Source: Nocardioides mesophilus (GTDB lineage: Bacteria; Actinomycetota; Actinomycetes; Propionibacteriales; Nocardioidaceae). From it: a stretch of DNA of 64,000 nucleotides. Position 1 is the first letter of the stretch. The number at the start of each line of letters is the position of its first letter. The position numbers and the translations under genes were made by a program. Location: positions 1,206,501 through 1,270,500 of the forward strand of contig NZ_CP060713.1 in assembly GCF_014395785.1 (NCBI RefSeq), read 5' to 3'. The notes beneath the pieces were generated by a model. That model was not told where the DNA came from, did no database searches, and saw only the letters and a list, made by a program, of their open reading frames with translations. Below, one piece after another: positions 37,186-59,015 of this stretch.

Positions 37186-37187
37186 CC

Positions 37188-38633
37188 TCAGACCACGCGC
37201 AGTTCGAGGTCGAGCAGGTCGGCGACGGCCCGGAGATCGGGGACCCGGTGTCCGGTGCCGAGAGCCCAGTGGTGGCCGACCCCGCTCCCGGACCACTCGT
37301 CGGTCCACTCGCCCGGGTCACGCCCGAAGTCGACCCGGGAGGTCGTGTTGCCGATAGCCAGCAGCGGTCCGGGCACCACCTCCCCCTCGGAGGCGACGAG
37401 ACAGAAGGTTCCATCGCGGTGTTGACCCAGACCGCACAAGGTGACGGGGCCGTGCCGCACGTCGAACTCGACCGAGACACCCCATCCGCGCTTCCCGTGG
37501 TAGACCCCAAGACCACGGAGCAGGGGTCGCCGCGAGCTGATCGCCAGGTGGGCGGGACCGTCGTGGCCCATCTCGACCACGTCGTCCCGGAAGTTCAGCG
37601 CCTGCAGCTCCGTGAACGAGCCGCCGGCACCGAGCCGGTCCATGACCAGCATGGCCAGCGACGTCCGCAGCTCATACTCACCGACCGTGGGAATGCCTCG
37701 CGCCGTCAGCAGCGAAGCGCCGAGGATCAGACCCGCTCCCACCCGCTCATGCATCTCGCCGTCGAGGCCACGGTGGTAGTAGGCCAGGGAATCCAGCGCG
37801 AAGTCGGCGACCAGACGGTCCAGGGCGACCGACACCCTGGCCGCCCATCGGAAGTCGTCTACCGCCACCGACTCGTCCAGGGTGAACAAGTCCCGGGCGA
37901 GGTCCATCCGGGCCGCCGTCTCGTCGTCGGTGACCTGCTCGACCCTGACCCTCAGATCGTCGATCTCCAGGGTCTCGACGTGACCTCCGAGCTGCGAGGA
38001 GACCAGCGTCGGGTCGGACGAGACGTCCATCATCCCTGGATAGAGGTGACCCATGAGTCCGTGCCGCCCGTGACGGAAGGACGCACGGACTCCGGCCGCC
38101 TTGACCCAGCGGCCGATCCGCGTCCAGGCGCGCTCGTCCTCCACGTAGCCTGAGACGGACCGGAAGTCGATGCCACAACGCTCGAACGCGTTCGCCATCT
38201 CCGGCAGCGGGCACGCCCCGCAGTACGCCAGCCAGGCGCCGGTGTCGAAACTGGCATGGTCCATGGTCTCGCTCGGCTGCAGGTTGAGCAGCAGCACCGG
38301 AGCACCGCTGCGTTGCGCCACCGGCACCAGCATGTTCGCGGTCATGTACGTGGTCAGGAAGCCGATGATCAGGTCGCAGTCGGCCGCCCGCAGCTTCGCG
38401 GCAGCCTCTGCACCTTCCTGCGCGTCCGAGATGAACCCGACGTCGACGACCTCACAGTCCAGGTCCGAAAGCCGGGCGGAGACACGCCGGGCGGATGCCT
38501 GCAGCTGCGGGAGCAACGTCGGGAACTGCGGCCAGTAGGCACCGAGCCCACCCGACACGAGACCCACCCTCGTCTTGCGTGGGCTGATCCGTTCCAGGCC
38601 GGGGGTGATGGAGGCAGCTTCTGTCTGGGTCAT
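37188..38633 (-). CDS. L-fucose/L-arabinose-isomerase-family protein
   Basis: The 481-residue protein has the FucI/AraA-like N-terminal domain (RVGLVSGGLGAYWPQFPTLLPQLQASARRVSARL; DCDLIIGFLTTYMTANMLVPVAQRSGAPVLLLNLQP) and a C-terminal half with GIPTVGEYELRTSLAMLVMDRLGAGGSFTELQALNF...EMGHDGPAHLAIS, where family members place metal-binding Glu and His. It probably interconverts an aldose and ketose. The locus already has a dedicated rhamnose isomerase (40735-41901), so this enzyme may act on a second sugar (L-fucose, L-arabinose or similar). The start ATG is 11 bp after the upstream stop. Confidence 0.82.
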   Translation of the reverse strand: MTQTEAASITPGLERISPRKTRVGLVSGGLGAYWPQFPTLLPQLQASARRVSARLSDLDCEVVDVGFISDAQEGAEAAAKLRAADCDLIIGFLTTYMTANMLVPVAQRSGAPVLLLNLQPSETMDHASFDTGAWLAYCGACPLPEMANAFERCGIDFRSVSGYVEDERAWTRIGRWVKAAGVRASFRHGRHGLMGHLYPGMMDVSSDPTLVSSQLGGHVETLEIDDLRVRVEQVTDDETAARMDLARDLFTLDESVAVDDFRWAARVSVALDRLVADFALDSLAYYHRGLDGEMHERVGAGLILGASLLTARGIPTVGEYELRTSLAMLVMDRLGAGGSFTELQALNFRDDVVEMGHDGPAHLAISSRRPLLRGLGVYHGKRGWGVSVEFDVRHGPVTLCGLGQHRDGTFCLVASEGEVVPGPLLAIGNTTSRVDFGRDPGEWTDEWSGSGVGHHWALGTGHRVPDLRAVADLLDLELRVV

Positions 38634-38644
38634 CTTCGGTCCGA

Positions 38645-40711
38645 TCAGCGGAGGAACGCGGCGGCGACACCGGCGTCGACGGGAATGTGGAGTCCGGTGG
38701 TGTGGCTCAGACTGCCACCGGTGAGCGCGAAGACTGCTGCGGCGACGTTCTCGGGGAGGACCTCGCGCTTGAGCAGGGTCCGCTGGGCATAGAACTCGCC
38801 GAGCTCGGCCTCGGGAACCCCGTAGACGGCGGCTCGCTGCGACCCCCAGCCGTTGGCGAAGATGCCGGACCCCTGGACGACCCCGTCGGGGTTGACGCCG
38901 TTGACGCGGATCCCGTGTGCCCCGAGCTCCGCCGCGAGCAGTCGCACCTGATGGGCCTGGTCCGCCTTGGCCGCCCCGTAGGCGACGTTGTTGGGCCCTG
39001 CGAACACAGCGTTCTTCGAGGAGATGTAGACGATGTCACCCCCCATCGACTGGGCGATCATGGTCTTGGCCGCCGCGCGGGAGACCAGGAACGATCCCTT
39101 GGCCATCACGTCGTGCTGGAGGTCCCAGTCCTGCTCGGTCGTATCCACGAGCGACTTCGAGATCGACAGGCCGGCGTTGTTCACCACCAGGTCGACGCCG
39201 CCGAAGGCGAGCGAGGCGGCGTCCACGGCGGACTGCACCGCCGCGGCGTCCGTCACGTCCGCGGTCACTGCCACTGCTGCGTCAGGACCACCGATGCCCG
39301 CCGCGACCGCACTCGCTGAGTCCGCGTCGAGGTCGGCGACGACCACGCACGCCCCTTCTCGGGCCAGCCTCTCGGCGATGGCCTTGCCGATGCCCGATCC
39401 GGCCCCAGTCACCAGCGCCACCCGGCCGGCCATCGGCGCGGGGGCGGGCGCACGTCGCAGCTTGGCTTCCTCGAGCTCCCAGTACTCGATTCGGAACTTC
39501 TCCGCCTCGTCGATCGGGTCGTACGCCGAAACGGCCTCGGCCCCGCGCATGACGTTGATCGCGTTCACGTAGAACTCGCCGGCCACCCGCGCGGTCAACT
39601 TGTCGGCGCCGTAGCTGAACATCCCGACGCCCGGGACGAGAACGATCGCCGGATCGGCGCCGCGCATCGGCGGCGAGTCGGCGCCGGCGTACCGGCGGTA
39701 GTAGTCCTCATAGGCCCGGCGATAGTCCTGGTGCAGTTCCCGGAGCCTCGCCACCACCGCCTCGAGCGGGGCGTTGCCGGGGAGGTCGAGCACCATCGGA
39801 CGGACCTTGGTCCGCAGGAAGTGGTCGGGACACGACGTGCCGAGGGCCGCGAGCCGGGACAGCTCGGCTCGGGAGCAGAAGTCGAGGACCGCAGGAGCGT
39901 CCATGTAGTGCCCGACCTGACGCGCGTCCGTGGACACGAGACCCCGGATCACCGGCGCGAGTGCGGCTGCTCGATCCCACCGCTCCCGGTCGGGCAACGC
40001 CTCGAACCCCGGGACCTGTGGTCCGAACGGCTCACTGCGCCCGTGTTCGGCAAGGAAGGACTCGGCCGTTCGGATGATCTCCAGTGAGTTGGCTTCACAT
40101 TCGGCGGAGGTGTCTCCCCAGGCAGTGATGCCGTGGCCGCCGAGGATCACGCCGATGGCCGTCGGATTTGCCTCCCTGACCGCAGCGATGTCGAGTCCGA
40201 GCTGGAACCCGGGACGCCGCCACCCGACCCAGGCGACCCGGTCCCCGAAGCACTGCTTGGTCAGAGCCTCACCGTCGGCCGCCGTCGCCAAGGCGATGCC
40301 GGAGTCCGGATGCAGATGATCGATGTGCGCGGCTTCGACGAGGCCGTGCATGGCGGTGTCGATGGACGGCGCGGCGCTCGGCCTGCCGTGCAGGCAGTAG
40401 TCGAAAGCCGACACCATCTCGTCCTCTCGCTCGACTCCGGGATAGACCCGGGTCAGGGCACGGAGCCGGTCGAGGCGCAGCACCGCGAGACCCTCCGGCA
40501 CCAAGGTGCCGAGATGACCACCGGAACCCTTGACCCAGAGGACGTCAGTGAGCTCGCCGGTGACGGGATCGGGGATGCGGCCCTTGGCCGACGTGTTGCC
40601 GCCGGCGAAGTTGGTGTTGCGTCTGTCCGCCCCCAAGGCGTTGCTCCGGGCGATGAGGCTGCTCACCGGATCGTCGGTCGATCTCGCGGAGGAGGAGGGT
40701 GATGCGGTCAT
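38645..40711 (-). CDS. Bifunctional rhamnulose-1-phosphate aldolase / L-lactaldehyde dehydrogenase (RhaEW type)
   Basis: The 688-residue fusion has an N-terminal class II aldolase (TNFAGGNTSAKGRI; zinc-type ligands in HGLVEAAHIDHLHPDSG and GGHGITAWG, about residues 25-420). A C-terminal short-chain dehydrogenase follows (VALVTGAGSGIGKAIAERLA; NNAGLS; YISSKNAVFAGPNNVAYGAAK with the YxxxK pair, about 430-688). Known fusions split rhamnulose-1-phosphate to DHAP and L-lactaldehyde, then oxidise the aldehyde to L-lactate with NAD. The ATG at 40711 is preceded by AGGAG; an upstream TTG at 40738 is less likely. Confidence 0.92.
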   Translation of the reverse strand: MTASPSSSARSTDDPVSSLIARSNALGADRRNTNFAGGNTSAKGRIPDPVTGELTDVLWVKGSGGHLGTLVPEGLAVLRLDRLRALTRVYPGVEREDEMVSAFDYCLHGRPSAAPSIDTAMHGLVEAAHIDHLHPDSGIALATAADGEALTKQCFGDRVAWVGWRRPGFQLGLDIAAVREANPTAIGVILGGHGITAWGDTSAECEANSLEIIRTAESFLAEHGRSEPFGPQVPGFEALPDRERWDRAAALAPVIRGLVSTDARQVGHYMDAPAVLDFCSRAELSRLAALGTSCPDHFLRTKVRPMVLDLPGNAPLEAVVARLRELHQDYRRAYEDYYRRYAGADSPPMRGADPAIVLVPGVGMFSYGADKLTARVAGEFYVNAINVMRGAEAVSAYDPIDEAEKFRIEYWELEEAKLRRAPAPAPMAGRVALVTGAGSGIGKAIAERLAREGACVVVADLDADSASAVAAGIGGPDAAVAVTADVTDAAAVQSAVDAASLAFGGVDLVVNNAGLSISKSLVDTTEQDWDLQHDVMAKGSFLVSRAAAKTMIAQSMGGDIVYISSKNAVFAGPNNVAYGAAKADQAHQVRLLAAELGAHGIRVNGVNPDGVVQGSGIFANGWGSQRAAVYGVPEAELGEFYAQRTLLKREVLPENVAAAVFALTGGSLSHTTGLHIPVDAGVAAAFLR

Positions 40712-40734
40712 GTCGTCGGTGCTCCTGTGACTGT

Positions 40735-41901
40735 TCAAGCGTTCCAGCCGGCCTGTTGACCGTGCGCGCGGTCGGACTCGATCTGCGCCTGGTAGCCGCT
40801 GCGGTGGTACGCCGCGAGCGGGTCCGGGTCGCGTCCGGACTCCTCCCTCAGCTCCCGCAGCAGCGGCCTGACGTCGGTGTTGTAGGCGTCCATCAGCACG
40901 CCGTTGGCGCTCAGCACGTCACCGGACTGCTGCGCGTCCCGCAGAGCCCCTCTATCCACCAGGAGCGCCTTCGCGGTCGCCTCCTGGATGTTCATGACGG
41001 AGCGGATGATCGCCGGGATCTTCGCCTCGATGTTGTGACACTGATCGAGCATGAAGTTGATTCCGTAGGACGGCTCCAGGGCCTCCCCGCGCACGATCTC
41101 GTACATGATGCGGAAGAGTTGGAACGGATCTGCTGCCCCGGCCATCAGATCGTCGTCGGCGTAGAACCGGGAGTTGAAGTCGAAGGCCCCGAGCTTGCCC
41201 TGGCGCAGCAAGAACGCGACGATGAACTCGATGTTCGTCCCCGGTGCGTGGTGACCGGTGTCGATGCACACGAACGCCTTCGGGCCCAGCTCCACGCAGT
41301 GCGCGAACGAGGTACCCCAGTCGGGGACGTCGGTGGCGTAGAACGCCGGCTCGAAGAGCTTGTACTCCAAGAGCATCCGCTGGTTCGCGCCGAGCCGGTC
41401 GTAGGTCTCATGGAGAGCCGCGGAGAGGCGCTCCTGCCGATCGCGCAGATCGTCCTGGCCGGGATAGTTGAGGCCGTCGGCGAACCACAGCTTCAGATCC
41501 CGCGAGCCTGTGGCGTCCATGATCGAGACAGCCTCGAGCAGATGATCGGTCGCCTTCCGGCGGATTCTCGGGTCGGCGTTCGTCACCGAACCAAGCTTGT
41601 AGTCGTCGTCCTGGAACACGTTCGTGTTGATCGCGCCGATGCGGACTCCCGCGTCCTGGGCGAACAGGTTGAGCTTGGCGTAGTCCTCGACCGCGTCCCA
41701 CGGCACGTGGAGTGCGACGCTGGGTGCGACTCCGGTGAGGCGGTGCACCACCGCGGCGTCCGCGATCTTCTCCTCGGGTGTGCGCGGCACCCCGGGCTGG
41801 GCGAACACCTTGAAACGTGTCCCGGAGTTGCCGAACGCCCACGACGGTGTCTCGATCGCCTGCGCCGCAAGGGCTGCCTTCACGGTGGTCGGGTCAGGCA
41901 T
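40735..41901 (-). CDS. rhaI: L-rhamnose isomerase (RhaI type)
   Basis: The 388-residue TIM-barrel enzyme resembles the Pseudomonas-type L-rhamnose isomerase. Metal-ligand segments are LLEYKLFEPAFYATD, AFVCIDTGHHAPGTNIEFIVAFLL and LGAFDFNSRFYADDDLMAGAADPFQLF. It turns L-rhamnose into L-rhamnulose. The ATG at 41901 overlaps the mutarotase stop by 8 bp; a GTG at 41910 is a possible alternative. It sits between the mutarotase and aldolase genes in pathway order. Confidence 0.92.
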   Translation of the reverse strand: MPDPTTVKAALAAQAIETPSWAFGNSGTRFKVFAQPGVPRTPEEKIADAAVVHRLTGVAPSVALHVPWDAVEDYAKLNLFAQDAGVRIGAINTNVFQDDDYKLGSVTNADPRIRRKATDHLLEAVSIMDATGSRDLKLWFADGLNYPGQDDLRDRQERLSAALHETYDRLGANQRMLLEYKLFEPAFYATDVPDWGTSFAHCVELGPKAFVCIDTGHHAPGTNIEFIVAFLLRQGKLGAFDFNSRFYADDDLMAGAADPFQLFRIMYEIVRGEALEPSYGINFMLDQCHNIEAKIPAIIRSVMNIQEATAKALLVDRGALRDAQQSGDVLSANGVLMDAYNTDVRPLLRELREESGRDPDPLAAYHRSGYQAQIESDRAHGQQAGWNA

Positions 41902-42289
41902 CGTGATCACGCTGCTCGTGGCGGCCCTCGAGGTTCGCAGGTTCCGTCCCGTTCAAGGCAACAAGCTGGTCCTCCAGATGGAACACCTCGGGGAGCAGCA
42001 CGAGTCCTTCGTCCGGCGGACGGCCGTCGAGCCCGGTGAAGAGCGAGGCCATGGATTCCTGCCACAGGCCGTTGACCTCAGTGGCCGCCATAGCGGCCTG
42101 GGCCGCATCGAGATCGTCGGCGTCCACGTAGCCGACCAACAGCCCGTCGTCCCGCAGGAAGAGCGAGTAGTTGGACCAACCACTGTCGCGAAGCGCCGCG
42201 AGCATGTCCGGCCACACAGCCTGATGACGACGGACGTACTCGTCCATCTGGTCGGGTCGAACCTGGAGACAGAAGCAGTAGCGGGCCAT
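41894..42289 (-). CDS. rhaM: L-rhamnose mutarotase
   Basis: The 131-residue ferredoxin-like alpha/beta barrel protein shows ARYCFCLQVRPDQMDEYVRRHQAVWPDMLAALRDSGWSNYSLFLRDDGLLVGYVDAD, with the conserved His near residue 22 and the GWxNYSLFLR segment of RhaM. It speeds the alpha/beta anomer exchange of L-rhamnose after uptake. About 25 C-terminal residues extend past the usual family length. AGGAG lies 5 nt before the ATG at 42289. Confidence 0.9.
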   Translation of the reverse strand: MARYCFCLQVRPDQMDEYVRRHQAVWPDMLAALRDSGWSNYSLFLRDDGLLVGYVDADDLDAAQAAMAATEVNGLWQESMASLFTGLDGRPPDEGLVLLPEVFHLEDQLVALNGTEPANLEGRHEQRDHDA

Positions 42290-42296
42290 GGTGCTC

Positions 42297-44015
42297 CTAG
42301 ACGATCGGGAGGAGGAGTCGGCTGGGCCGTGCTGCGTCGTGGAAGACACGCTGCTCGGCCGTGACGAAGTCGGCGATGGTCGCCGTGGCTGGGTCGACCA
42401 TCGATTGCGGGTTGCGATCGAAGCGGGGAAAGTTGGAGCTGGCAACCTGGAGCCGGATCCGGTGACCTGCCCCGAAGGTGTGGCTGATGCTCCCCAGGGT
42501 GATCGTGAAGAGCTCAGGAGCTCCTGGCGTGAGCGGGGCAGGCCGGGCGCCCGCCCGGTAGCGGGAACGCAGGATGCCATCGATGATGCCGACGCTGACA
42601 CCGTCGGCGTCCACGTCCGTCAGCCGCCCGGTCCAGTCGCAGTCGACTGCCGACGACGACGCCCACAGCTCGAGCACGACCGGACCGGTGACCGTGCAGG
42701 GTTCGGTGAGCAGCTCGCTGGTGTAGATGAGCACGTCATCGCGATTCTCAACCGATGTCTGGTCCTTGTGGCCGGAGTTGCGTGCCACCAGCAGGCCGGG
42801 GAGGAAGGTCGCGCCACCGATCGTCGGGACAGGGTCGAGCGGGTCCGACACGAAGGCACGCGGCGCCGCCTCACCGACGGGCGGGTCGTAGGTGAGTGTC
42901 GACGGCCCGGCGTCGCCGGAGCCGAGGTAGAGCGGTGTCTCGACGACGCCCGGCAGCGGCCAGTCCTCGGCCTCGTGCCAGTCGTTGGTGCCGGTGGTGA
43001 AGTACGTGACTCGCGGCATCTCGGGCCTGCGTCCCGCCACCGCGGCCGAGAAGAACTCCAGCTGGCGACCGGTCAGGTCCAGGACCGCCGAGTGAGCGGC
43101 ATAGCCGAGCCAGGCGTCGCCCTGCCAGTCGCTCATGTTGCCGTGCGACCAGGGACCGACGATCAGGTACTGACCGTCCCGCGCGTCACTGGTCGCACTG
43201 CCGGTGCGCATCCCGACGTAATTGTTCAGGGATCCCTCGAGGAACAGGTCGTTCCAGCCGGCGATGTGCAGGGCGGGCACCTCCATGTCCCCGTATCGGC
43301 GGGACGGGTTCATCTCCTCCCAGTAATCGTCACGGGTCGGGTGCGCCAGCCAGTCGTCGGCGTACGGCGCCAGTTGCTTCAGGTGCCCGCTGCGCACGGG
43401 GAGGATCTCCATCGCCTTGGCCGGATCGGACAGCAGCTGGGCGAGCAGCTGCACCCCGCGGTCGGTCCCGTCGAGCTCGCGTCGGACCACGTCTGATGGG
43501 GCGAGGGACTCCATGATCCACAGGAGGATGAAGCCGAGCTGGAGTGCGCCAGACCGGTACGTCCAGTTCTCGTAGTAGTCGCCGGTCGTCACCTGGGGAG
43601 CCATGGCCACCAGGCCGGCCGGGCGCTCCTGCGCCAGCAACATCTGGGTGGCACCGATGTAGGACGCCCCGTAGGTACACACCTGCCCGTTGCTGAAGTC
43701 CTGGTCCCGCACCCAGCTGACCGCCGCGGCGCCGTCTGCCGCCTCGTGCGCGAACGGTTCGAAGTCGCCTTCTGAGGTGAACCGTCCCCTGGTGTCCTGA
43801 ACGACGACCGCGAAGCCGAGGTCGAGCGCCCTCACGATCTCCATGCCGACGGCGCTCTGGGTCATGAATGAGGACGACTTGTCATAGGGCAGCCGCTGGA
43901 GCAGCGTCGGGAAAGGCCCTTCGCCGGCCGGGATCCAGATGTCGGCCCGCAGGATCTCCCCCGACGGCAGCCGCATCTCGGCGTTTCGGCGCAGCGTGAG
44001 CTCCGTGGCCGCCAT
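42297..44015 (-). CDS. CocE/NonD-type alpha/beta hydrolase (X-Pro dipeptidyl-peptidase family)
   Basis: The 572-residue protein has the S15/CocE layout. The nucleophile elbow is VCTYGASYIGATQ (Ser118); AGWNDLFLEGSL supplies the Asp region and IVGPWSHGNMSDW the His region. A C-terminal jelly-roll lies within CTVTGPVVLELWASSSAVDCDWTGRLTDVDADG...SHTFGAGHRIRLQVASSNFPRFDRNP. No signal peptide is evident, so it acts in the cytoplasm. In a rhamnose operon it may remove acyl groups from imported rhamnosides. Coupling: TGATG overlap with the permease gene; ATG 44015, alternative GTG 44018. Confidence 0.88.
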   Translation of the reverse strand: MAATELTLRRNAEMRLPSGEILRADIWIPAGEGPFPTLLQRLPYDKSSSFMTQSAVGMEIVRALDLGFAVVVQDTRGRFTSEGDFEPFAHEAADGAAAVSWVRDQDFSNGQVCTYGASYIGATQMLLAQERPAGLVAMAPQVTTGDYYENWTYRSGALQLGFILLWIMESLAPSDVVRRELDGTDRGVQLLAQLLSDPAKAMEILPVRSGHLKQLAPYADDWLAHPTRDDYWEEMNPSRRYGDMEVPALHIAGWNDLFLEGSLNNYVGMRTGSATSDARDGQYLIVGPWSHGNMSDWQGDAWLGYAAHSAVLDLTGRQLEFFSAAVAGRRPEMPRVTYFTTGTNDWHEAEDWPLPGVVETPLYLGSGDAGPSTLTYDPPVGEAAPRAFVSDPLDPVPTIGGATFLPGLLVARNSGHKDQTSVENRDDVLIYTSELLTEPCTVTGPVVLELWASSSAVDCDWTGRLTDVDADGVSVGIIDGILRSRYRAGARPAPLTPGAPELFTITLGSISHTFGAGHRIRLQVASSNFPRFDRNPQSMVDPATATIADFVTAEQRVFHDAARPSRLLLPIV

Positions 44016-45033
44016 CACGCCTCCCTGACGAAGGTCTGGCGAAGCCGGTCGAAGGACACCGCCAGGATCAGCAGGGCGCCGGTCGCCACCTGCTGCCAGG
44101 AGGAGTCCACGTTGAGCAGAGTCAGGCCGTTGCTCAGCACCCCGACGATCAGCAGCCCCAGGACCGTTCCGAAGACCCCGCCGGTCCCCCCTGGAGGCTG
44201 GTGCCGCCGAGGATCACGGCGGTGATCGCTGCGAGCTCCAGCCCCGTACCGGTGGTTCCCGAGGTGGAGCCGACCAAGGACGCGTTCATGAGGCCCGCCA
44301 GTCCCATGCAGAGTCCCGAGACGACGAAGGCTGCGAACAGGTTGCGCCTGACCTTGAGCCCGACGAGCCGCGAGGCCAAGAGGTTCGATCCGATCGCGTA
44401 CATCGAGCGTCCGTACACAGTGAAGGTGAGAACCACGGCGAAGAGCACCGTCACGGCGACGAAGACCAGGACGGTGACGGGGATGTCGAAGGCGGGTCGC
44501 TTGATCCCCCAGGAGAAACCGTCGATCGCGATGTTCTGGCCGCCGCCGATCGCCAGCGTCAGACCCCGGAAGATTGCCATCGCCCCGAGCGTCGTGATGA
44601 GCGCGTTGACCCCCACGACCGTGACGAAGAAGCCGTTCACAGCACCGATGCCGATCCCGGCCAGAACCGCGATGACCAGTGCGGTCGTGACGCCGACGTC
44701 CGGTGCCAGAGTCGCGAGGACGACCCCCACGAACGCGATCCCGCTGCCGACCGACAGGTCGAACTGGCCAGCCACCAGCAGCAGGGTCATGCCGCATGAC
44801 AGCACGCCCACCACTGACATTGCGGTCAGGATGTTGGTCCAGTTGCTCCAGTTGAAGAAGTAGGGCGACCGCAGCGCGAAGAAGATGACTTCCAGGAGCA
44901 GGAACGCCAGCAGGGCCGCGCTGTTGGGGACGGAGAGCCGTCTGCCACCGCGGGTCTCGGCTGTCGGTGGCGAGTTCGGCGCCGCCATCTCGGCTCCGGT
45001 CGGGCCGAGGGTCTTCAGCTGGGGGTCAGACAT
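44015..45033 (-). pseudogene. CUT2 sugar ABC transporter permease, interrupted by a -1 frameshift
   Basis: The reading frame from ATG 45033 encodes an RbsC-like permease (SVVGVLSCGMTLLLVAGQFDLSVGSGIAFVGVVLATLAPDVG; NGFFVTVVGVNALITTLGAMAIFRGLTLAIGGG; YGRSMYAIGSNLLASRLVGLKVRR; GLELAAITAVILGGTSLQGG). At the G6 tract near 44186-44191 the frame is lost. Protein sequence resumes in another frame as TGGVFGTVLGLLIVGVLSNGLTLLNVDSSWQQVATGALLILAVSFDRLRQTFVREA to the stop at 44015. One additional G restores a full-length protein of about 339 residues. This may be a real mutation, a slippage site or a consensus error. Confidence 0.85.
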
Positions 45034-46542
45034 GACTGGTTCCTCCTGACAGCGACGCGCCGCCCGCGGAGCGGGTGAGCGCATCGACCGTGATCGCGTC
45101 ACCCGTGTGCCGGGCGACGACCTCTCCTCTGACCATGACCAGGGCTTCGTCTGCCATCGCCACGACGTCCTCGTAGTCCGAGGTCGCCACGAGGACGGCG
45201 CTGCCCCGGTCAGCCAGTTCGCGGACGGACTGGTAGATCTCCTGGCGGGCTCCCACATCGACGCCTCTGGTCGGCTCGGCGAGCACCAGGACGCGAGAGC
45301 CGCACTCGAGCCATCGCCCGAGAAGCACCTTCTGCTGGTTGCCGCCCGAGAGCGTCCCGATCGGCTGACGGGGGTCGTTTCTCGACCGCACGCTCAGGAC
45401 GTCGTGCCAACGTCGGTATGCCGCCGCCTCCAGTCCGCGGGTGACGCCGACGCCGGCCTTGCCGAGCCGTCTCCAGCTCGGCGCGGACACGTTCTCGGCC
45501 AATGACCGTCCGGTCAGGATTGCCTGGCTCTTGCGGTCGGGAGGCAGGAAGCCGATACCGCGGCCGATCGCGTCCGACGGGTCCTTGAGCCGCACCGGCG
45601 TGCCGTCGACCAACAGTTCCCCGGAACTGAGACGCCCGACCCCGAAGATGACCTCCGCGACCTCCGGAACGCCTGACCCGATTTTGCCGTAGAGGCCGAC
45701 GACCTGCCCCGGACGGACCGCGAAGCTGACGTTGTGCAGGTATGCCGAGCTCGCGGCTCGCAGCTCGACACCCATCCGGTCGTCGAGACCCCCCTGGCCG
45801 GACCGCCCATATCGCTTGCCCACGATGCTCCGCCCACCATGGCCTCGACGACGCTGGTGGTGTCCACCTCTGCCGTCGCGGCGTTCATGGAGACGACGCC
45901 GTCACGAAGGACGCAGATGCGTCCGGCGATCTGGAAGACCTCGTCCAGTCGGTGAGTGATGTAGACCACCGCGACGGACCGTTCGCGGAGACGTTCGATG
46001 AGGCGGAACAACCGTTGCGCCTCGGTGTCTGAGAGGGCTGCGGTGGGCTCGTCGAAGATGATGCATCGGTTGTCCCCGGCCAAAGCCCGGGCGATCTCGA
46101 TGATCTGACGCTCCCCCAGACGCAGTCCACCCACCGGCTGGTCAAGTGGGATGTCGGCGCCGAGCTCGGCAAGCAGCTCCTCGGCCCGTCGACGCATGGC
46201 CCGCCGGCTGACCAGGCCGCCTCGGCTGGGCCAGTTCCCCAACGAGATGTTCTCGGCCACGCTCAGGTCGGGAGCGTCGCTGATCTCCTGTGAGATCAGC
46301 CGGATGCCCCAAGCCCGCGACGCGGCGATACTTCCGAACCGCTCCTCGTGCCCGTCGATGCGAAGCTGTCCGGAGTCCGGGTTCTGGTCGCCGGCGAGGA
46401 TTCGCACCAGCGTGGATTTGCCGGCGCCGTTCTCCCCGAGGAGAGCGAGGACCTCCCCTGCCTGGACGTCGAGATCGACGCCATGCAGGACTTCCACAGG
46501 ACCGAAGGACTTCCGCACGTCGCGGACACTGAGGAACGGCAT
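45026..46542 (-). pseudogene. CUT2 sugar ABC transporter ATPase (RbsA-like), interrupted by a -1 frameshift
   Basis: The first nucleotide-binding domain reads from ATG 46542 (Walker A LLGENGAGKSTLVRIL; signature LRLGERQIIEIARAL; Walker B CIIFDEPTAALSD). The second lies in another frame (VVGLYGKIGSGVPEVAEVIFG; TLSGGNQQKVLLGRWLE; VLVLAEPTRGVDVGARQEIY) and ends at 45026. The frames meet at CCAGGGGGG near 45788-45793, in the linker after VVEAMVGG. Adding one G joins them into about 505 residues, the normal RbsA length. The same CCAG6 context breaks the permease gene. Confidence 0.87.
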
Positions 46543-46550
46543 CGGACGCC

Positions 46551-47639
46551 TCAGCAGCTGTAGTCGGGGTAGAAGTCGGTGACCGTGTCGGCTGTGACGA
46601 ACTCGTGCGGGACTAGCAACTCGCTCGGGATCTGCTCACCCTTGATCGCCTTGATCAGGTAGGGAACCAGCAGCTCCCCGTAGTGCTCGGGGAAGTAGGC
46701 GACGCTGCCCAACCAGTGCGGAGCGTCGTAGATGACGCAGTTGTCGGGGTTGAGGTTCTGCACCCCGAGGTACAGGTCATCCTCGCGACCCTGGGTGCGG
46801 GCCGCCGCCAGCGCGCCGATGATGACGTCTTCGTTGATGCCGACGACGATCACCTTCTTGGCCCCGGGGAGTGCTGTGAGCGTGTCGGTCATCTGCTTCT
46901 GCGCCACGTCGGTCTGGCCGCCGGCCCCGGTGTCGACCTGGCGAAGGTCGTGGACCTTGCCACAGACGCTCTCGAAGCCCTTGCGGATCCCGCCCATCCG
47001 GAGCTCGTTGACCTCGCCTACTGCCTCGGACTCCAACGACACGAAAGCGTCGTAGTCACAGTTCTCCTTCTCGAAGAAGTACTTGCCGACGTTGTAGCCG
47101 ATCAGCTCGCCGGCGTACTCGTTGGCAGCGCCCACGAAGGCGGTCTGGCACGGATCCTGCGTGATGTCGACCGCCATCACGGGCACGTCGGGGCCGGCCG
47201 CACAGATCCGCGGCGCAGCGTTCGTGTCGGCCTGGAAGGTGATGAGACCGTCTGCTCCCTGGACCTTGAACTGCTTGGCGCAGTCCAGAGCCCGGGCCGC
47301 GTCGCCCTTCGAGTCGCAAGTGATCAGCTCAGCGCCCGAGTTCGCGATCTGCTCCTCGACGCTCTTCTGGACCGCCTGCACGAAACCGACCGAGAGGTCG
47401 AGCTCGGTGATGCCGATCTTCAAACCCTCCCCGCTGCCTGCCTTCGCGTCCTCGAACGGGACGACCCCGGTCGGCGGCGTGGGCGGCTTGGCCTCAGCAC
47501 CTTGGCCACCCTGGCCAGCTTGGCCGCCCGCTGCCGCTCCCGCGTCAGAGGCCTCGGAGCTACCACATCCCCCGAGGACAGCTACGAGCGCGCATGCGGT
47601 GAGCAATGAGCCCGCGCGCTTCAGTTTGACGATGGTCAT
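46551..47639 (-). CDS. Sugar ABC transporter substrate-binding lipoprotein (putative rhamnose)
   Basis: The 362-residue protein has a lipoprotein signal with lipobox VLGGC (Cys25), a Gly/Gln/Ala-rich linker and a periplasmic-binding-protein type 1 domain (KIGITELDLSVGFVQAVQKSVEEQI; QGADGLITFQADTNAA; VPVMAVDITQDPCQTAFVGAANEYAGELIGYNVGKYFF; KKVIVVGINEDVIIGALAAARTQGR). It is the first gene of the rhamnose operon. ATG 47639 is chosen because GAGGAG sits 5-6 nt upstream. A LacI-type palindrome lies 14 bp before the start. Confidence 0.9.
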   Translation of the reverse strand: MTIVKLKRAGSLLTACALVAVLGGCGSSEASDAGAAAGGQAGQGGQGAEAKPPTPPTGVVPFEDAKAGSGEGLKIGITELDLSVGFVQAVQKSVEEQIANSGAELITCDSKGDAARALDCAKQFKVQGADGLITFQADTNAAPRICAAGPDVPVMAVDITQDPCQTAFVGAANEYAGELIGYNVGKYFFEKENCDYDAFVSLESEAVGEVNELRMGGIRKGFESVCGKVHDLRQVDTGAGGQTDVAQKQMTDTLTALPGAKKVIVVGINEDVIIGALAAARTQGREDDLYLGVQNLNPDNCVIYDAPHWLGSVAYFPEHYGELLVPYLIKAIKGEQIPSELLVPHEFVTADTVTDFYPDYSC

Positions 47640-47652
47640 GACCACTCCTCGA

Positions 47653-47664
47653 TGAAACGTTTCA
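47653..47664. promoter_or_regulatory. LacI-type operator O1 of the rhamnose operon
   Basis: TGAAACGTTTCA is a perfect 12-bp palindrome with the central CG typical of LacI-family operators. It lies between the RBS of the binding-protein gene and its expected promoter. Related sites occur at 47813-47824 and 52894-52905. Confidence 0.8.
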
Positions 47665-47812
47665 GTAGGTGAGCGAACGATATGGCCAGCGTCACATCCT
47701 CGTCAAGCATCGAGGCCGCTTCCGCGACAAAATATCTGCGCCACGCCCCACGCGTCTTTCCCGGCAGTGCTGGTCCGCGACCCGCCGCATCGTCGTATGG
47801 TGGTGGCTGAGT

Positions 47813-47824
47813 AGTCACGTTTCA
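47813..47824. promoter_or_regulatory. LacI-type operator O2 in front of lacI-type gene
   Basis: AGTCACGTTTCA keeps the right half ACGTTTCA of O1 and is degenerate on the left. It lies 14 bp before the GTG of the regulator and would allow autoregulation and looping with O1 about 160 bp away. Confidence 0.55.
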
Positions 47825-47838
47825 AAGGAGCAGTTCAC

Positions 47839-48903
47839 GTGCCGCAACGTGTCAGCGACGAGCCGCCGCCCCACCGCGTGGTTGGCGCGCCCCGGACCGC
47901 CGGCGTCAAGGAAGTAGCGGCGCACGCAGGTGTCTCGCTCGGCACGGTGTCCAACGTGCTCAACCGGCCGGAACGAGTGAGCAGCCGGACCCGGGCTCGG
48001 GTAGAGGCAGCCATGAGCGAGCTCGGCTTCATGCGCAACGAGTCGGCCCGGCAGCTGCGAGCCGGGAGCAGCCGAACTCTCGGTTACGTGATGCTCGACG
48101 CGACCAACCCGTTCTTCACCGACGTGGCACAGGGAATCGAGGAGGCTGCGGACGAGGCCGATCTGTCGTTGTTCATCTGCAACAGTGACAACCGGTCTGA
48201 GCGCGAGCGCACCTACCTGGACCGTCTGCAGCAACAGCGGGTGCAGGGCATCTTGATCACCCCCGTTGACCCGGACGCCGCGATCCTCGACGAAGTGTCG
48301 GCCCGCGGAACCCACATCGTGATCGTCGACCGGACCCGGCACAACGAGACGCACTGCTCAGTCGCTGTCGATGACGTCCTCGGTGGTGAGCTGGCGATCG
48401 AGCACCTCATCGAACTGGGGCATCGCCAGATCGCCTTCGTCGGTGGACCGGACACGGTAGGGCAGGTCCTGGACCGGCGGCTCGGAGCGAAGAACGCCCT
48501 CGTCCGCGCCGGCCTCGGGGAGTCGAACCTCACGGTGGTGCCCACCTTCGCCATGACCGCCGCCGAAGGACGCGGTGCCGGTGAACGCATCGCCGGCCTG
48601 CCCGCTGCAGCCCGACCGACTGCCGCCTTCTGCGCCAACGACCTGCTGGCCTTCGGGCTGCTCCAGCAGTGCGTCACCCTCGGGATGCGCGTTCCCGAAG
48701 ACTTGGCGATTGTGGGCTACGACGACATCGAGTTCGCCTCCGCCGCGGCTGTGCCCCTGACGTCGGTTCGTCAGCCTCGGCGTCAACTCGGCAGAACCGC
48801 AGCGGAAATGCTGCTGGACGAGGCGAGCCCGGGGCACGAGCACCGCCAAGTGCTCTTCACCCCGGAACTCGTCGTCCGCGCCTCCACCCGCCACTCGGGC
48901 TGA
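47839..48903 (+). CDS. LacI-family transcriptional regulator (putative rhamnose regulator)
   Basis: The 354-residue repressor has an N-terminal LacI helix-turn-helix and hinge (GVKEVAAHAGVSLGTVSNVLNRPERVSSRTRARVEAAMSELGFMRNESARQLRAG, about residues 22-76) and a sugar-binding core (LGYVMLDATNPFFTDVAQGIEEAADEADLSLFICNSDN; ELGHRQIAFVGGPD; AFCANDLLAFGLLQQC; VPEDLAIVGYDDIEFA). AAGGAG precedes the GTG at 47839 by 7 nt. It is divergent from the rhamnose operon and convergent with the large secreted protein, both of which carry operator-like palindromes. Confidence 0.92.
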   Translation: MPQRVSDEPPPHRVVGAPRTAGVKEVAAHAGVSLGTVSNVLNRPERVSSRTRARVEAAMSELGFMRNESARQLRAGSSRTLGYVMLDATNPFFTDVAQGIEEAADEADLSLFICNSDNRSERERTYLDRLQQQRVQGILITPVDPDAAILDEVSARGTHIVIVDRTRHNETHCSVAVDDVLGGELAIEHLIELGHRQIAFVGGPDTVGQVLDRRLGAKNALVRAGLGESNLTVVPTFAMTAAEGRGAGERIAGLPAAARPTAAFCANDLLAFGLLQQCVTLGMRVPEDLAIVGYDDIEFASAAAVPLTSVRQPRRQLGRTAAEMLLDEASPGHEHRQVLFTPELVVRASTRHSG

Positions 48904-48909
48904 GCCGAT

Positions 48910-51900
48910 CTACCTACCGAGAACCTCCAGCTCGGCGACCTGCACCCCTCGGGGGTCCCATCCAGCGGTCACGCTCAGCCGCACGTACCGGGCCGTCGCA
49001 CTGACATCGAGGGAGTCGCTCGTGGCCAACCGGGGACGGCTGCGGTTCCCCAGCGTTGTCCAACCACCTGCGCCGTCATCCACCTGCCACGCGAACTCGG
49101 ACGGGCCGTAGTCGTTGGTCGAGTTGATTCGTGGCACCATCCGTAGCTGGGAGAGCTCCACGGTGCGACCCAGGTCGACGATCACCCATTGGGGGGACGT
49201 AGGCGTGGCAGGCGCCCCGCTGACCCAGAAGGTAGCTGCGATCCCGTCCACCGCGTTTGTGGCCGGATAGAGAGCCTGGCTCGATGAAGCAGTGGCGACG
49301 GCCCCCACGGCCACGTTGGTCGGCGGCACCTGGTCGCTGATGCTGACTTCGGCCACCTGCACCGACCGGCTCGGCGAGATGCGGTCGTAGGCCGAGGTGA
49401 TGCGCAGCCTGAGAGCATCCACCTGGCTGAGCGGAACCGCGTGCTCCTCCGTGGCATTGGCCTGCGACACGTCGCGGGCAAGAGTCACCCACTCACCTTC
49501 AACCCGCCCTTCGATGTCCATGGTCTTGGGTCCGAAGCCGAGGCGAGGCTGGACCGTGACCGATCCGACTTGGACAGTTGCACCAAGCTCCAGGGTCAGG
49601 AGCTCGGGGTCCGCCGCCGTAGGACCGTCACCGGCAACCCAACCGTTGCTCACCCAGAACGTCGACCCGTCACCGTCGTTGGCGTTGGCCGGCAGGTAGT
49701 CCTCCGTCTGGGTGCTGGAGGCAGTCATCCGCGGGAACCCGGTGCCGAACCGATTCAGTGCCATCTGAGGAGACGCGAAGAAGTCGACCGTCGCCACCCC
49801 GTCGGGCAGGGTCTCCTCCGTCGCGGTCACCCTGACCTCCATCCTGTGCAGGCCGTCGGTCACTCCGGCCCGAACCAGGTCGGTCGACAACTCGGTTTCA
49901 CCGTGAGCGGGCACCGAGACGACGGCTCCCTTGCTGGTGGCATCCACCCCCTCAGGGATGTCGAACGTCACGTCGGCGACAACAGGGCGGGACAGTCTGT
50001 TCTGCACCGTCGCCCGGACCGACCGCTCGATCGACCCACCCAAGGAGACCTGGCGCGGCGAAACGGCCACGACCAGAGGATCGAGGACGCTCACCCTGGT
50101 GGAGTCGCTGAGTGTCAACGTCCCCGGACCGATCTTGACCGACGCCCGGGCGACAACAGTTCCGTCCTCGGACGTGGGGTCTGCGTGCAGTTCGACCGAG
50201 GCGACGAGCTCGTCCCCCGCCTTGAACGTGTCGGTGGTGGCCGTGACCGGACCGGCCGCGAGGTCGCTGGTCACGGTCAGCTTCGCGGGCGCCGCCGTCC
50301 GCTCACCGAGCTGACGCGTCAGCCGGACCGGCACCATGGTCGGGGTCTCACCCCGCACCAGCGAGACGTCCTCGGGGACGTGGAGCGAGATGCCGACCAG
50401 GCCCGCAGCCGCCCGGCTCAGGGGTGCGGTTGTCGGAGACGTTGCATCACGCAGCGCCACCATGATCTGGTCGAGTGACTCGCTTTCATCCCCTGCGGCG
50501 AGCGCCGTGATGGCTTGCCACACATGGTTGTCGACCTTGGGGTCGACGCCCAGCGCGTCGACCAGGTCGACCAGTGCGGGGCTACCGAAGAACGCTTGCG
50601 TCCCGGAGACGACGGCTACCGCCCGCTCCCCCGGGGCGATGCTGCCCTGTGCGACCTGGCCGCCGGCGAACGTCACCGTCACCTCGGCGACCTGGTCGCC
50701 CTCGTTGCTCAGCTTCACCACGTCGGCGCGGGGCGCCGAAGCGATCACGGGCGCAGTCGAGCTGGCCTTCGCCGGGGCCACCTGCGCACGGGCTTCCACG
50801 GCGCTCGCCGAGAGGTGCCAGGTGGACACCGAACCGTCAACGACGACACCAGAGGGGATCACCGGTCCGCCGGCCAGCTCGAGGTCGGTCTCGACCGGGC
50901 CGGCGAAGCGAGCGGCCAGCACCCCGACGCTGCCGTCCGGTGCCGTCGCCTGCACGGCTTGCCAGCCGTTCGGTGTCGCCGGCCGGCTGGTCGAGGCCGC
51001 CAACGCTGCCATGTCCGCGTCGGTCAGGTCAGGGGCCAACACCGCCGCACGACGGCCGTCACCTCCTGCGACCGAACCACTGATGCTGTCCAAGAAGTTC
51101 TCACCCGAGCGAATCCCCCTCTGGACGTCGATACCGGCTCCACCGCTGACCACCATGCCAAGCCGGCTGTCGATGTTGAACCACGGTACGTCGGACACCC
51201 CTGCGGGAAGCGGGCCGTCGGGGCCGCTGATCGGCCGGTCACCGGTCAGCCCGGCAATCCGTTCGAGCGTCACGGGGAACGTCCGTCCCTTACCGGCTTC
51301 CAGGACCGGCATCAGCCCGTTGGGCAGCGACCCAACAGCAAAACCCCGGCCTCCTACGATCTGGGCGACGGCGTACTTGTCCTCGTCGCATTCGCACGAC
51401 GCTGCGGTCACCGACGATGCCGGAGCGCCGATCAGGCTCCCGATCGCGTAGTTGACGAGCACAGGATCGGCGGGGTGCAGGGTCCCGTCGGGGATCAGGA
51501 GGCCCATGGGGCGGGCGCTGGTCCAGTTGATGCTGCGAAGAGTGCCGTCCTGACGATCCAATGCGAACTTGCTGGCCTCGTAGGTGTGGACACCCTCACG
51601 CGAGCCCTCGATCTTCGACATGCCAGCCGCGTCTGTCACCGCCGCGGGCCCGAGGTTCTGTCGCATCAGGTAGGCGTAAGACATCCGCTTGATCAAGACC
51701 GATTCGTAGCCAACGTCGGCTTGACCGATGATCGCGCCGTCGGACCGAGCATCTTGACGGGCCTTCACCGCAGCCAACGCACGACTGGCGTACTCGGTGG
51801 CGTCGGGGCGCTGGAACCAGGTGCCCATCAAGGCGAGGTAGCCCAGGTGCTGGTAGTCCTTGGCCACCCAGTCCTGGCCATGAGTCATCAGCAGGTCGCC

Positions 51901-52872
51901 GTCGGGCGTGATGAGAGGAGCGAGGATCTTGTCGTAGATCTTCTCGACCCGGAACTCGAACGCCTCCGGGACGGGCTGACCGGTCAACCTGCTGGTCAGG
52001 ATGGCCTCACCCATGTCGTAGCCGATCACTTGCTGGTACAGCGGGTTGAAGAACCCGTGGTTCTCCAGCGTCAGGTCAGGCAGCAGGTTGGACGACTCGG
52101 TCCAGTCGGCGACCGTCCTGCCGTCCACGACGTCCTCGGTGTTGCTGACGTCTGAGGGCACCGTCGAGGCGTTCACGGCAAGCCGCTGTGCGGTCCTGCG
52201 CCAGGCCGGGGCGTGAGGATTCGTGGGCCACCAGCCTGCGGCGAGCTCCGGCAACGGGGTGTTCCAGCCATTGTCCTCACCGCCGGTATTGCCCGGCGTA
52301 GCTGTGGCAGCCTTCTTGTTGATCAGGATGTCTGCCTCATAGCGGATCACCTTCCCGGCGACGTCGAGCGTCCGGTCAGACAGTTGGTCACGCAGCATGT
52401 AGGCGGCGGTGCCCCAACCGGAGGTCTCCAGCGCGGCCTGCCAAGTCCCGCCTCCCCAGTTTCCGCCCTGGCTCTTGTTCGTCATCGCTGCGTCGAAGAT
52501 CGTCCGGTCGACGTGGTCGAGCAGCTCACTGCGCGGGTGTCGTTCCTCGCCGAAGAACTGCTGGTCCGGGCGAGCTGTCAGCAACGTCGCGTATGCGATC
52601 GCGATGTTGCCCTTGCCACGCGGCTGGGTCACTCCGGCACCGTTCGCATCGAAGGTCCCCGCCGACTCCTGCCAGAAGTCCTCCGCGCGGTCGACGAAGC
52701 GCTCGATGACCTGCAACATCGTTTCACTGTCGTCGGCCGGGGCCGGCGTTTCCGCGGCCCCGGCTGATGCCGGGCCGAGCGCGAGAGCCGCGAGCGACAG
52801 GGCGAGAACCCCTCTCAGAGAAGTTCGATCTATGCGAATTCTTCGACTCTGACGCGCATGCGGTAAGCCCAT
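48910..52872 (-). CDS. Large secreted multidomain protein, probable polysaccharide-active enzyme with two F5/8C-type domains
   Basis: The 1,320-residue protein begins with a signal peptide (basic start, then GVLALSLAALALGPASAGAAE). An N-terminal module (about residues 45-600) is rich in Trp, His and helices (GGNWGGGTWQAALETSGWGTAAYML; EDNGWNTPLPELAAGWWPTNPH; TLENHGFFNPLYQQVIGYDMGEAIL; MTHGQDWVAKDYQHLGYLALMGTW) and looks like an alpha/alpha-toroid. A beta-rich NEW3-like stretch follows at about 960-1045. Two discoidin/F5-8C-like domains end the protein (about 1055-1180 and 1185-1320, each with NDGDGSTFWVS/VDGIAATFWVSG). I cannot assign a CAZy family. A LacI-type operator before the gene suggests a rhamnose-containing glycan. 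Confidence 0.8.
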   Translation of the reverse strand: MGLPHARQSRRIRIDRTSLRGVLALSLAALALGPASAGAAETPAPADDSETMLQVIERFVDRAEDFWQESAGTFDANGAGVTQPRGKGNIAIAYATLLTARPDQQFFGEERHPRSELLDHVDRTIFDAAMTNKSQGGNWGGGTWQAALETSGWGTAAYMLRDQLSDRTLDVAGKVIRYEADILINKKAATATPGNTGGEDNGWNTPLPELAAGWWPTNPHAPAWRRTAQRLAVNASTVPSDVSNTEDVVDGRTVADWTESSNLLPDLTLENHGFFNPLYQQVIGYDMGEAILTSRLTGQPVPEAFEFRVEKIYDKILAPLITPDGDLLMTHGQDWVAKDYQHLGYLALMGTWFQRPDATEYASRALAAVKARQDARSDGAIIGQADVGYESVLIKRMSYAYLMRQNLGPAAVTDAAGMSKIEGSREGVHTYEASKFALDRQDGTLRSINWTSARPMGLLIPDGTLHPADPVLVNYAIGSLIGAPASSVTAASCECDEDKYAVAQIVGGRGFAVGSLPNGLMPVLEAGKGRTFPVTLERIAGLTGDRPISGPDGPLPAGVSDVPWFNIDSRLGMVVSGGAGIDVQRGIRSGENFLDSISGSVAGGDGRRAAVLAPDLTDADMAALAASTSRPATPNGWQAVQATAPDGSVGVLAARFAGPVETDLELAGGPVIPSGVVVDGSVSTWHLSASAVEARAQVAPAKASSTAPVIASAPRADVVKLSNEGDQVAEVTVTFAGGQVAQGSIAPGERAVAVVSGTQAFFGSPALVDLVDALGVDPKVDNHVWQAITALAAGDESESLDQIMVALRDATSPTTAPLSRAAAGLVGISLHVPEDVSLVRGETPTMVPVRLTRQLGERTAAPAKLTVTSDLAAGPVTATTDTFKAGDELVASVELHADPTSEDGTVVARASVKIGPGTLTLSDSTRVSVLDPLVVAVSPRQVSLGGSIERSVRATVQNRLSRPVVADVTFDIPEGVDATSKGAVVSVPAHGETELSTDLVRAGVTDGLHRMEVRVTATEETLPDGVATVDFFASPQMALNRFGTGFPRMTASSTQTEDYLPANANDGDGSTFWVSNGWVAGDGPTAADPELLTLELGATVQVGSVTVQPRLGFGPKTMDIEGRVEGEWVTLARDVSQANATEEHAVPLSQVDALRLRITSAYDRISPSRSVQVAEVSISDQVPPTNVAVGAVATASSSQALYPATNAVDGIAATFWVSGAPATPTSPQWVIVDLGRTVELSQLRMVPRINSTNDYGPSEFAWQVDDGAGGWTTLGNRSRPRLATSDSLDVSATARYVRLSVTAGWDPRGVQVAELEVLGR

Positions 52873-52893
52873 GGTGACCCCGATCCTCGATAT

Positions 52894-52905
52894 TGAATCG
52901 TTTCA
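52894..52905. promoter_or_regulatory. LacI-type operator O3 upstream of the secreted protein
   Basis: TGAATCGTTTCA differs from the perfect O1 palindrome TGAAACGTTTCA at a single position. It lies 22-33 bp upstream of the ATG at 52872, where it could block transcription. It links the extracellular protein to the rhamnose regulon. Confidence 0.7.
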
Positions 52906-53058
52906 GATTCGAGAATCTCCCACCACTGGTTCCGGAGCGTCAAGAGGTGGTGACCGCTTGATGAGACGCAGGTCACTCGGACCGAGGGCGTCTTGCGACC
53001 TCACACCCCGGTGGCCGGCCGCGCGAGCGGCCGCTTCGGAGATACTCGGACGTCCAAC

Positions 53059-58737: not shown

Positions 58738-59015
58738 GGCGGTGCTGATCCCCTCTGCAAACACGACTCCACCCCGGACCGCCCGGCGTGAAGGGCGGTT
58801 CACCAACCCCTGTGGTGCTCCCCCAGCGGCCGATGCCCCCAAGAAGGCCGCTGCCACCAGTGAAAAGCCCCAGATGAGAAAGACAGGAAAATCAGGGCGA
58901 AACCAGCCCGATCCGGCCATCAAGGCGGACCACCCGTCCGGCGTGGTAGTGCCTGCGGGTCAGGACACACGCCCCCCGTTGGGGTGACGGCGGCCCGTTT
59001 TCCATGGGGGTCGGC

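What the first reader, a model, noticed from the sequence alone, without database searches (positions are those of the whole stretch)
47653..52905. LacI operator set connects the rhamnose operon with a giant secreted protein
TGAAACGTTTCA (47653), AGTCACGTTTCA (47813) and TGAATCGTTTCA (52894) precede the transporter operon, the regulator gene and the 1,320-residue exported protein respectively. The three-site regulon implies that the extracellular protein releases or modifies the sugar that the operon consumes.
Basis: partly seen in the sequence, partly recalled or inferred. Interest (0 to 1): 0.7.

Follow-up and report, generated by a model that had tools for sequence, protein, structure and literature searches.

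The report
Rhamnose repressor controls secreted lyase-like protein
An actinobacterium appears to have added a huge secreted, polysaccharide-lyase-like protein and its matching sugar importer to its existing rhamnose-use switch, so the tool that frees the sugar and the genes that eat it should turn on together; the switch is of a known kind, but the secreted protein family is uncharacterised.

Summary
The three sites are at the stated places; the two strong ones are the only exact TGAAWCGTTTCA sites in the 4.49 Mb genome (0.04 expected). The third is a half-conserved operator, but about 20 of 28 related LacI regulators have a like site at the same place, and all 28 have a strong one. The regulator fits the known actinobacterial LacI-type RhaR. 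The shared-regulation claim is well supported. New here: the 1,320-residue protein and the importer at the head of the operon are orthologous to a pair of neighbours in Conexibacter and Actinomadura, and neither has an ortholog in the related genomes searched. A same-genus locus lacks both and keeps the normal rhamnose importer. So a secreted protein plus its importer was grafted around a resident regulator. The protein matches no Pfam or NCBIfam catalytic family; its model has an (alpha/alpha) toroid plus beta domain whose best structural matches are family 8 polysaccharide lyases (low TM-scores). The genome has no GH78 rhamnosidase. Best guess, untested: an exo-type lyase freeing a monosaccharide, perhaps L-rhamnose, from uronate-linked ends. 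In both relatives rhamnose genes lie elsewhere, so the sugar is not settled.

The parts
47653..47664 (.). Operator O1, perfect palindrome TGAAACGTTTCA, upstream of the importer/rha operon
47813..47824 (+). Operator O2, half-conserved AGTCACGTTTCA, 14 bp before the regulator start
   Evidence: same kind of site in most LacI orthologs
52894..52905 (.). Operator O3, TGAATCGTTTCA (TGAAACGATTCA on the - strand), 21 bp before the giant gene
   Evidence: no such site between lacI and the acyl-CoA dehydrogenase gene in the giant-free same-genus locus L099
47677..47706 (-). Promoter-like TTGACG-18-TATCGT of the operon; O1 begins 13 bp after it
   Evidence: consensus scan only
52914..52943 (-). Weak promoter-like TTGACG-18-GAGATT of the giant gene; O3 begins 9 bp after it
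   Evidence: read by eye; did not pass the scan
47839..48903 (+). LacI-family regulator (RhaR-like); recognition stretch GVSxGTVSN as in nearly all orthologs
48910..52872 (-). Giant secreted protein, 1,320 aa, signal-peptide-like N-terminus
51643..52710 (-). (alpha/alpha) toroid domain of the giant protein, residues about 55-410; H272 invariant in the alignments, Y279 invariant in the 16-member one, N201 in the six-member one
50563..51075 (-). Beta-sheet domain, residues about 600-770, well predicted
48949..49731 (-). Two F5/8 type C (discoidin, carbohydrate-binding-like) domains, residues about 1048-1308
46551..47645 (-). RbsB-like sugar-binding protein; 49-52% identical to the one beside the giant's orthologs in Actinomadura and Conexibacter
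45026..46542 (-). AraG-like importer ATPase, read in two frames (shift at the G6 run 45789-45794)
44015..44980 (-). AraH-like importer permease, read in two frames (shift at the G6 run 44186-44191)
42297..44018 (-). CocE/NonD family hydrolase, role unknown
41894..42289 (-). L-rhamnose mutarotase (RhaM)
40735..41910 (-). L-rhamnose isomerase (RhaI), above the TIGR02635 cut-off
38645..40738 (-). Rhamnulose-1-phosphate aldolase/dehydrogenase (RhaEW), above the TIGR02632 cut-off
37188..38633 (-). AraA/sulfoquinovose-isomerase-like protein, 78% identical to one in an Actinomadura rha cluster
35680..37308 (-). FGGY kinase, rhamnulokinase-like (RhaB); true start probably near 37180

Best explanation
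A LacI-type rhamnose repressor (RhaR) represses two promoters, and probably its own, from operators O1, O3 and O2, and is released by rhamnose or a catabolite of it (inferred from the family). Under O1 lies the rha catabolic operon led by a monosaccharide-type (CUT2, RbsB/AraGH-like) importer; under O3 lies a secreted protein of an uncharacterised family with a polysaccharide-lyase-like toroid plus beta domain and two discoidin-type binding domains. The secreted protein and the importer form a module that occurs together in distant actinobacteria and was inserted on both sides of a resident rhaR, displacing the usual RhaSTPQ importer. Most likely the secreted protein is a lyase that frees a monosaccharide (L-rhamnose is the first candidate) from uronate-linked ends of a plant or microbial polysaccharide, and the importer brings it in. 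Shown: sites, regulon structure, module linkage, displacement, absence of GH78, GH88 and PL8 matches in the genome. Inferred: repression and inducer, fold class (from a model), catalysis, the sugar.
For: Operators. Rha genes over curated cut-offs. Known RhaR precedent with uptake and rhamnosidase genes in the regulon: PMC3870299. Module linkage: giant orthologs about 40% identical with an importer 45-58% identical beside them in L103 and L105. Neither has an ortholog in the window's family: giant in 1 of 295 genomes apart from four weak partial matches at 28-35% identity, binding protein in 1 of 150. Giant-free, RhaS-keeping locus in the same genus. GC 68.1% against 72.5-72.8% in the flanks. 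Fold: Foldseek best five hits all PL8 lyases, E 1e-5 to 1.6e-4. No GH78 (PF17389), GH88 or PL8 match in the genome. Exo-release of a monosaccharide by PL8 xanthan lyase and of L-rhamnose from Rha-1,4-GlcA by other lyase families are precedents.
Against: No direct evidence of catalysis. Profile comparison with PL8 is not significant; global TM-scores are low (0.25-0.29 for the five PL8 hits) because domain packing and the middle of the model are poor; the toroid alone matches several (alpha/alpha)6 families about equally. Actinomadura keeps a separate rha cluster with its own importer and large proteins that look like rhamnosidases by eye, and the giant's ortholog in Actinopolymorpha has no such importer beside it. 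The importer genes are frameshifted in this assembly.
Confidence: 0.55

Rival explanations
1. Co-regulated but different sugar: the giant protein frees, and the importer carries, a monosaccharide other than rhamnose; RhaR control reflects a polymer that contains both sugars.
For: In Conexibacter and Actinomadura the module sits with enolase-superfamily dehydratases, a MocA oxidoreductase and an SDR while rhaI/rhaEW clusters lie elsewhere with their own importers.
Against: A RhaM-like mutarotase lies in the Actinomadura cluster; in the window the importer is first in the operon of rhaI, rhaEW and rhaB and no canonical RhaS exists in the genome. An SDR plus a dehydratase could also be the non-phosphorylated rhamnose route.
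Confidence: 0.27
2. The giant protein is not a lyase: it is a hydrolase, epimerase or glucuronate dehydratase on an (alpha/alpha)6 scaffold, or a non-catalytic polysaccharide-binding protein.
For: Toroid-only model matches a beta-glucuronate dehydratase, GH154 and GH88 before PL8; no significant sequence match to any enzyme family.
Against: The two-domain model ranks PL8 first and an N...H...Y pattern lies in register with the PL8 motif; H272 is invariant in both alignments of the family.
Confidence: 0.2
3. Site 52894 is a chance match or serves the acyl-CoA dehydrogenase gene on the other strand, and the giant gene is not in the regulon.
For: The site lies between two divergent genes.
Against: 0.04 exact sites expected genome-wide, two found, both in this cluster. 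The same-genus locus has the dehydrogenase gene directly after lacI with no giant gene and no site there.
Confidence: 0.05
4. The cluster is decaying: the frameshifted importer genes are real and the module is non-functional here.
For: ATPase and permease ORFs are each broken once.
Against: Both breaks lie at G6 runs, typical of homopolymer errors in an assembly; giant, regulator and catabolic ORFs are intact and two operators are perfect.
Confidence: 0.08

Closest known systems
LacI-type RhaR regulon of Actinomycetales (Rodionova et al. 2013, PMC3870299)
   Same: LacI regulator, palindromic operator, rhaI/rhaEW/rhaB/rhaM genes, and co-control of genes for rhamnose-containing oligosaccharides
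   Different: Importer replaced by an RbsB/AraGH-like one; the co-controlled secreted protein is not an alpha-L-rhamnosidase of a known family
Polysaccharide lyase family 8 (hyaluronate, chondroitin AC, xanthan lyases)
   Same: Predicted N-terminal (alpha/alpha) toroid followed by a beta domain; His and Tyr motif in matching register; secreted
   Different: No Pfam Lyase_8 match, no significant profile similarity; F5/8 C-terminal domains; about 10-13% identity to solved structures
L-rhamnose-alpha-1,4-D-glucuronate lyases, PL27 and PL42 (PMC8377490)
   Same: Proposed reaction: release of L-rhamnose from uronate ends
   Different: PL42 is a beta-propeller; PL27 has the beta domain first and the barrel last; here the toroid comes first
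GH78 alpha-L-rhamnosidases in rha clusters
   Same: Would play the same part in the pathway
   Different: No PF17389 match in this genome and no GH78 domain in the giant protein

Membership tests
Actinobacterial LacI-type RhaR regulon | LacI-family regulator next to rha genes | tested here: met
Actinobacterial LacI-type RhaR regulon | Conserved palindromic operator upstream of the rha operon across orthologs | tested here: met
   28 of 28 orthologous loci
Actinobacterial LacI-type RhaR regulon | rhaI, rhaEW, rhaB and rhaM in the operon | tested here: met
   (RhaI and RhaEW above curated NCBIfam cut-offs; RhaM above Pfam's; RhaB and RhaM below NCBIfam's)
Actinobacterial LacI-type RhaR regulon | RhaSTPQ-type importer | tested here: not met
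   no RhaS over cut-off in the genome; other importer. Not defining in the source paper, where transporters vary
Actinobacterial LacI-type RhaR regulon | Operator matches the published RhaR logo | tested here: inconclusive
   the logo is a figure, not held as text
Actinobacterial LacI-type RhaR regulon | Repressor binding and rhamnose induction | not testable with these tools
   needs bench work
Polysaccharide lyase family 8 | Sequence match to Lyase_8 models | tested here: not met
Polysaccharide lyase family 8 | (alpha/alpha) toroid plus beta-sandwich fold | tested here: inconclusive
   model agrees, PL8 top five, but low TM-scores and a poorly modelled middle
Polysaccharide lyase family 8 | Catalytic Asn, His, Tyr and Arg | tested here: inconclusive
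   N201, H272 and Y279 fall near the register of the PL8 motifs in a non-significant alignment
Polysaccharide lyase family 8 | Beta-elimination on a uronate polymer | not testable with these tools
   needs enzyme assay
GH78 alpha-L-rhamnosidase | Bac_rhamnosid domains | tested here: not met
   for the giant protein, for the genome (PF17389)
PL42 / PL27 rhamnose-glucuronate lyases | Beta-propeller (PL42) or N-terminal beta-sandwich with C-terminal barrel (PL27) | tested here: not met
   predicted toroid lies N-terminal

The most novel reading that the evidence does not exclude
The giant protein founds a new polysaccharide lyase family, related in fold to PL8, that frees L-rhamnose from rhamnosyl-uronate ends and travels between bacteria with its own monosaccharide importer as a two-part module that can be plugged into a resident repressor circuit.
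Probability: 0.25. Interest if true: 0.65.

Novelty: new variant of a known kind. Interest (0 to 1): 0.5.

Why it matters
It gives a testable function to a family of secreted proteins found in many actinobacteria that no library searched here names, and shows a secreted protein and its importer being added to an existing regulon, with operators for the resident repressor. If the activity is confirmed it would add an enzyme for removing rhamnose caps from plant gums or for cutting rhamnose-containing polysaccharides.

Tried and rejected
Sequence searches of the giant protein's catalytic part against PDB, Pfam and NCBIfam named only the C-terminal discoidin (and, in relatives, NEW3) domains. A first scan of genome contigs with the single sequence found nothing; a two-sequence alignment found five loci. 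Viral contigs gave nothing. A 16-member alignment was too diverse for the scan. Profile comparison with PL8 is not significant even with 40 family members. The toroid-only model did not discriminate among (alpha/alpha)6 families. Rejected: chance operator; O3 serving the dehydrogenase gene; GH78; PL42 and PL27. A literature search for the family in Nocardioides-like bacteria found nothing.

Full report
The observation. O1 (47653-47664) is a perfect palindrome just before the start of the binding-protein gene; O2 (47813-47824) lies 14 bp before the LacI gene; O3 (52894-52905) lies 21 bp before the 1,320-aa ORF. In the whole 4.49 Mb genome the pattern TGAAWCGTTTCA has only two exact matches, O1 and O3, and no further place with a single mismatch. 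A first-order Markov model of the window expects 0.04 exact sites per genome and about one in a million per 100 bp. O2 differs from the consensus at three positions.

Comparative test. LacI orthologs in the family were read for operators. Of 28 loci all have a full operator 96-351 bp before the aligned start of the regulator (TGAAAGGTTTCA, TGAAACGTTTCA or TGAATCGTTTCA, some with one mismatch). Most (about 20, depending on how degenerate sites are counted) have a second, often half-degenerate site, commonly ending in CGTTTCA, nearer the regulator. The recognition stretch GVSxGTVSNVLN is the same or nearly so in all regulators, including the one here. O2 is therefore most likely a genuine, asymmetric operator, and the set of sites is a regulon. 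A TTGACG...TATCGT promoter-like pair stands just before O1; a weaker one, read by eye, stands before O3. Both place the operator about where a repressor would block transcription (inference).

The operon. RhaI and RhaEW pass curated cut-offs; RhaM passes Pfam's, and the kinase is the best match to rhamnulokinase models but below their cut-off. Lactate-oxidation genes (LutB/LldF-like) follow, as described for some RhaR regulons that extend to lactate. A LacI-type RhaR that co-regulates rhamnose uptake, catabolism and oligosaccharide-processing genes in Actinomycetales is published (PMC3870299). The regulatory kind is known.

What is unusual. The importer is not RhaSTPQ. Its binding protein is RbsB-like and its ATPase and permease AraGH-like. 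G011 of the same genus and G050 of the same family carry RhaS over the cut-off in their rha loci; the window's genome has none. The order in G011 is SDR, acyl-CoA dehydrogenase (87% identical to the window's), lacI (73%), importer, rhaI, rhaEW, rhaB, with about 44 bp between lacI and the dehydrogenase gene. In the window the giant gene sits exactly there. The giant has no ortholog in 294 other genomes of the family, only weak partial matches in four; the binding protein has none in 149 others. Yet in Conexibacter arvalis (L103) and an Actinomadura (L105) giant orthologs of 1,228 and 1,233 aa stand next to, or a few genes from, a binding protein, ATPase and permease 45-58% identical to the window's. 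Two proteins absent from relatives but paired in distant genera are best read as one transferred module. The locus has 68.1% GC against 72.5-72.8% in the flanks. A third ortholog, in Actinopolymorpha alba (L104, the same place as G311), has no such importer beside it.

The giant protein. It has a Sec-type signal sequence (read from the sequence), an N-terminal domain of unknown family, and two F5/8 type C domains. The N-terminal domain recurs, at 22-35% identity, in proteins of many actinobacteria, and matches no Pfam or NCBIfam family. R85, W139, E179, W203, N271, H272, Y279 and E390 are invariant in a 16-member alignment; H272 also holds in distant Fibrobacterota-type homologs, while Y279 does not in the alignment. 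AlphaFold on six sequences gives a confident helical toroid and a confident later beta domain, with a poor middle (mean pLDDT 65.6, pTM 0.54). Its five best PDB matches are all PL8 lyases, then dermatan sulfate epimerase and alginate and glycosaminoglycan lyases. TM-scores are low (0.25-0.29). The toroid alone (pTM 0.82) matches beta-glucuronate dehydratase, GH154, GH88 and PL8 about equally. Profile comparison with PL8 is not significant, though a greedy alignment places N201, H272 and Y279 near the register of the PL8 Asn-His-Tyr motifs. I read it as a probable lyase of a new family, not as a PL8 member.

How it probably works. RhaR represses both promoters; rhamnose or a catabolite releases it. 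The secreted protein binds a polysaccharide through its discoidin domains and frees a sugar; a CUT2-type importer, a class that carries monosaccharides (established knowledge), takes it in. That points to exo-type release. PL8 xanthan lyase frees terminal mannose from a uronate (PMC10881899), and PL27 and PL42 free L-rhamnose from Rha-1,4-GlcA (PMC8377490). The genome has no GH78 match to PF17389, no GH88 and no PL8 match, so among the families tested the giant is the only candidate rhamnose source. The weak point is the sugar: in Conexibacter and Actinomadura the module keeps company with enolase-type dehydratases, a MocA oxidoreductase and an SDR, with a RhaM-like protein seen in Actinomadura only; their rha genes lie elsewhere.

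Verdict. Observation confirmed; interpretation partly supported. Known regulatory kind, uncharacterised secreted component and new arrangement.

Noticed in passing
45789-45794 and 44186-44191: The importer ATPase and permease ORFs each lose frame at a run of six G; probably homopolymer errors of the assembly, possibly decay.
   Followed up: partly
37188-38633: AraA/sulfoquinovose-isomerase-like protein of unknown role inside the rha operon; 78% identical to one in an Actinomadura rha cluster and 48-49% to one in Conexibacter, absent from G011 and G050.
   Followed up: partly
42297-44018: CocE/NonD-type serine hydrolase between the importer and rhaM; not found in the related loci compared.
   Followed up: no
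L111:10298-19001: Three very large secreted proteins that look like alpha-L-rhamnosidases (by eye, not scanned) follow rhaI, rhaEW and the isomerase-like gene in Actinomadura.
   Followed up: no
L052-L097: An unnamed toroid-domain family of secreted proteins in dozens of actinobacteria, some with N-terminal repeats, without any Pfam or NCBIfam model.
   Followed up: partly
55435-56424: Wall-anchor-like protein (LPNTG near the C-terminus) with about seven tandem CDAAVEDCDG repeats.
   Followed up: no
58024-58923: Protein with collagen-like GPAGPAG repeats.
   Followed up: no
35680-52872: Whole rha locus is lower in GC (68.1%) than its flanks (about 72.7%); RhaI is closer to Actinomadura (75%) than to the same genus (66%), so the locus is a mosaic.
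   Followed up: partly
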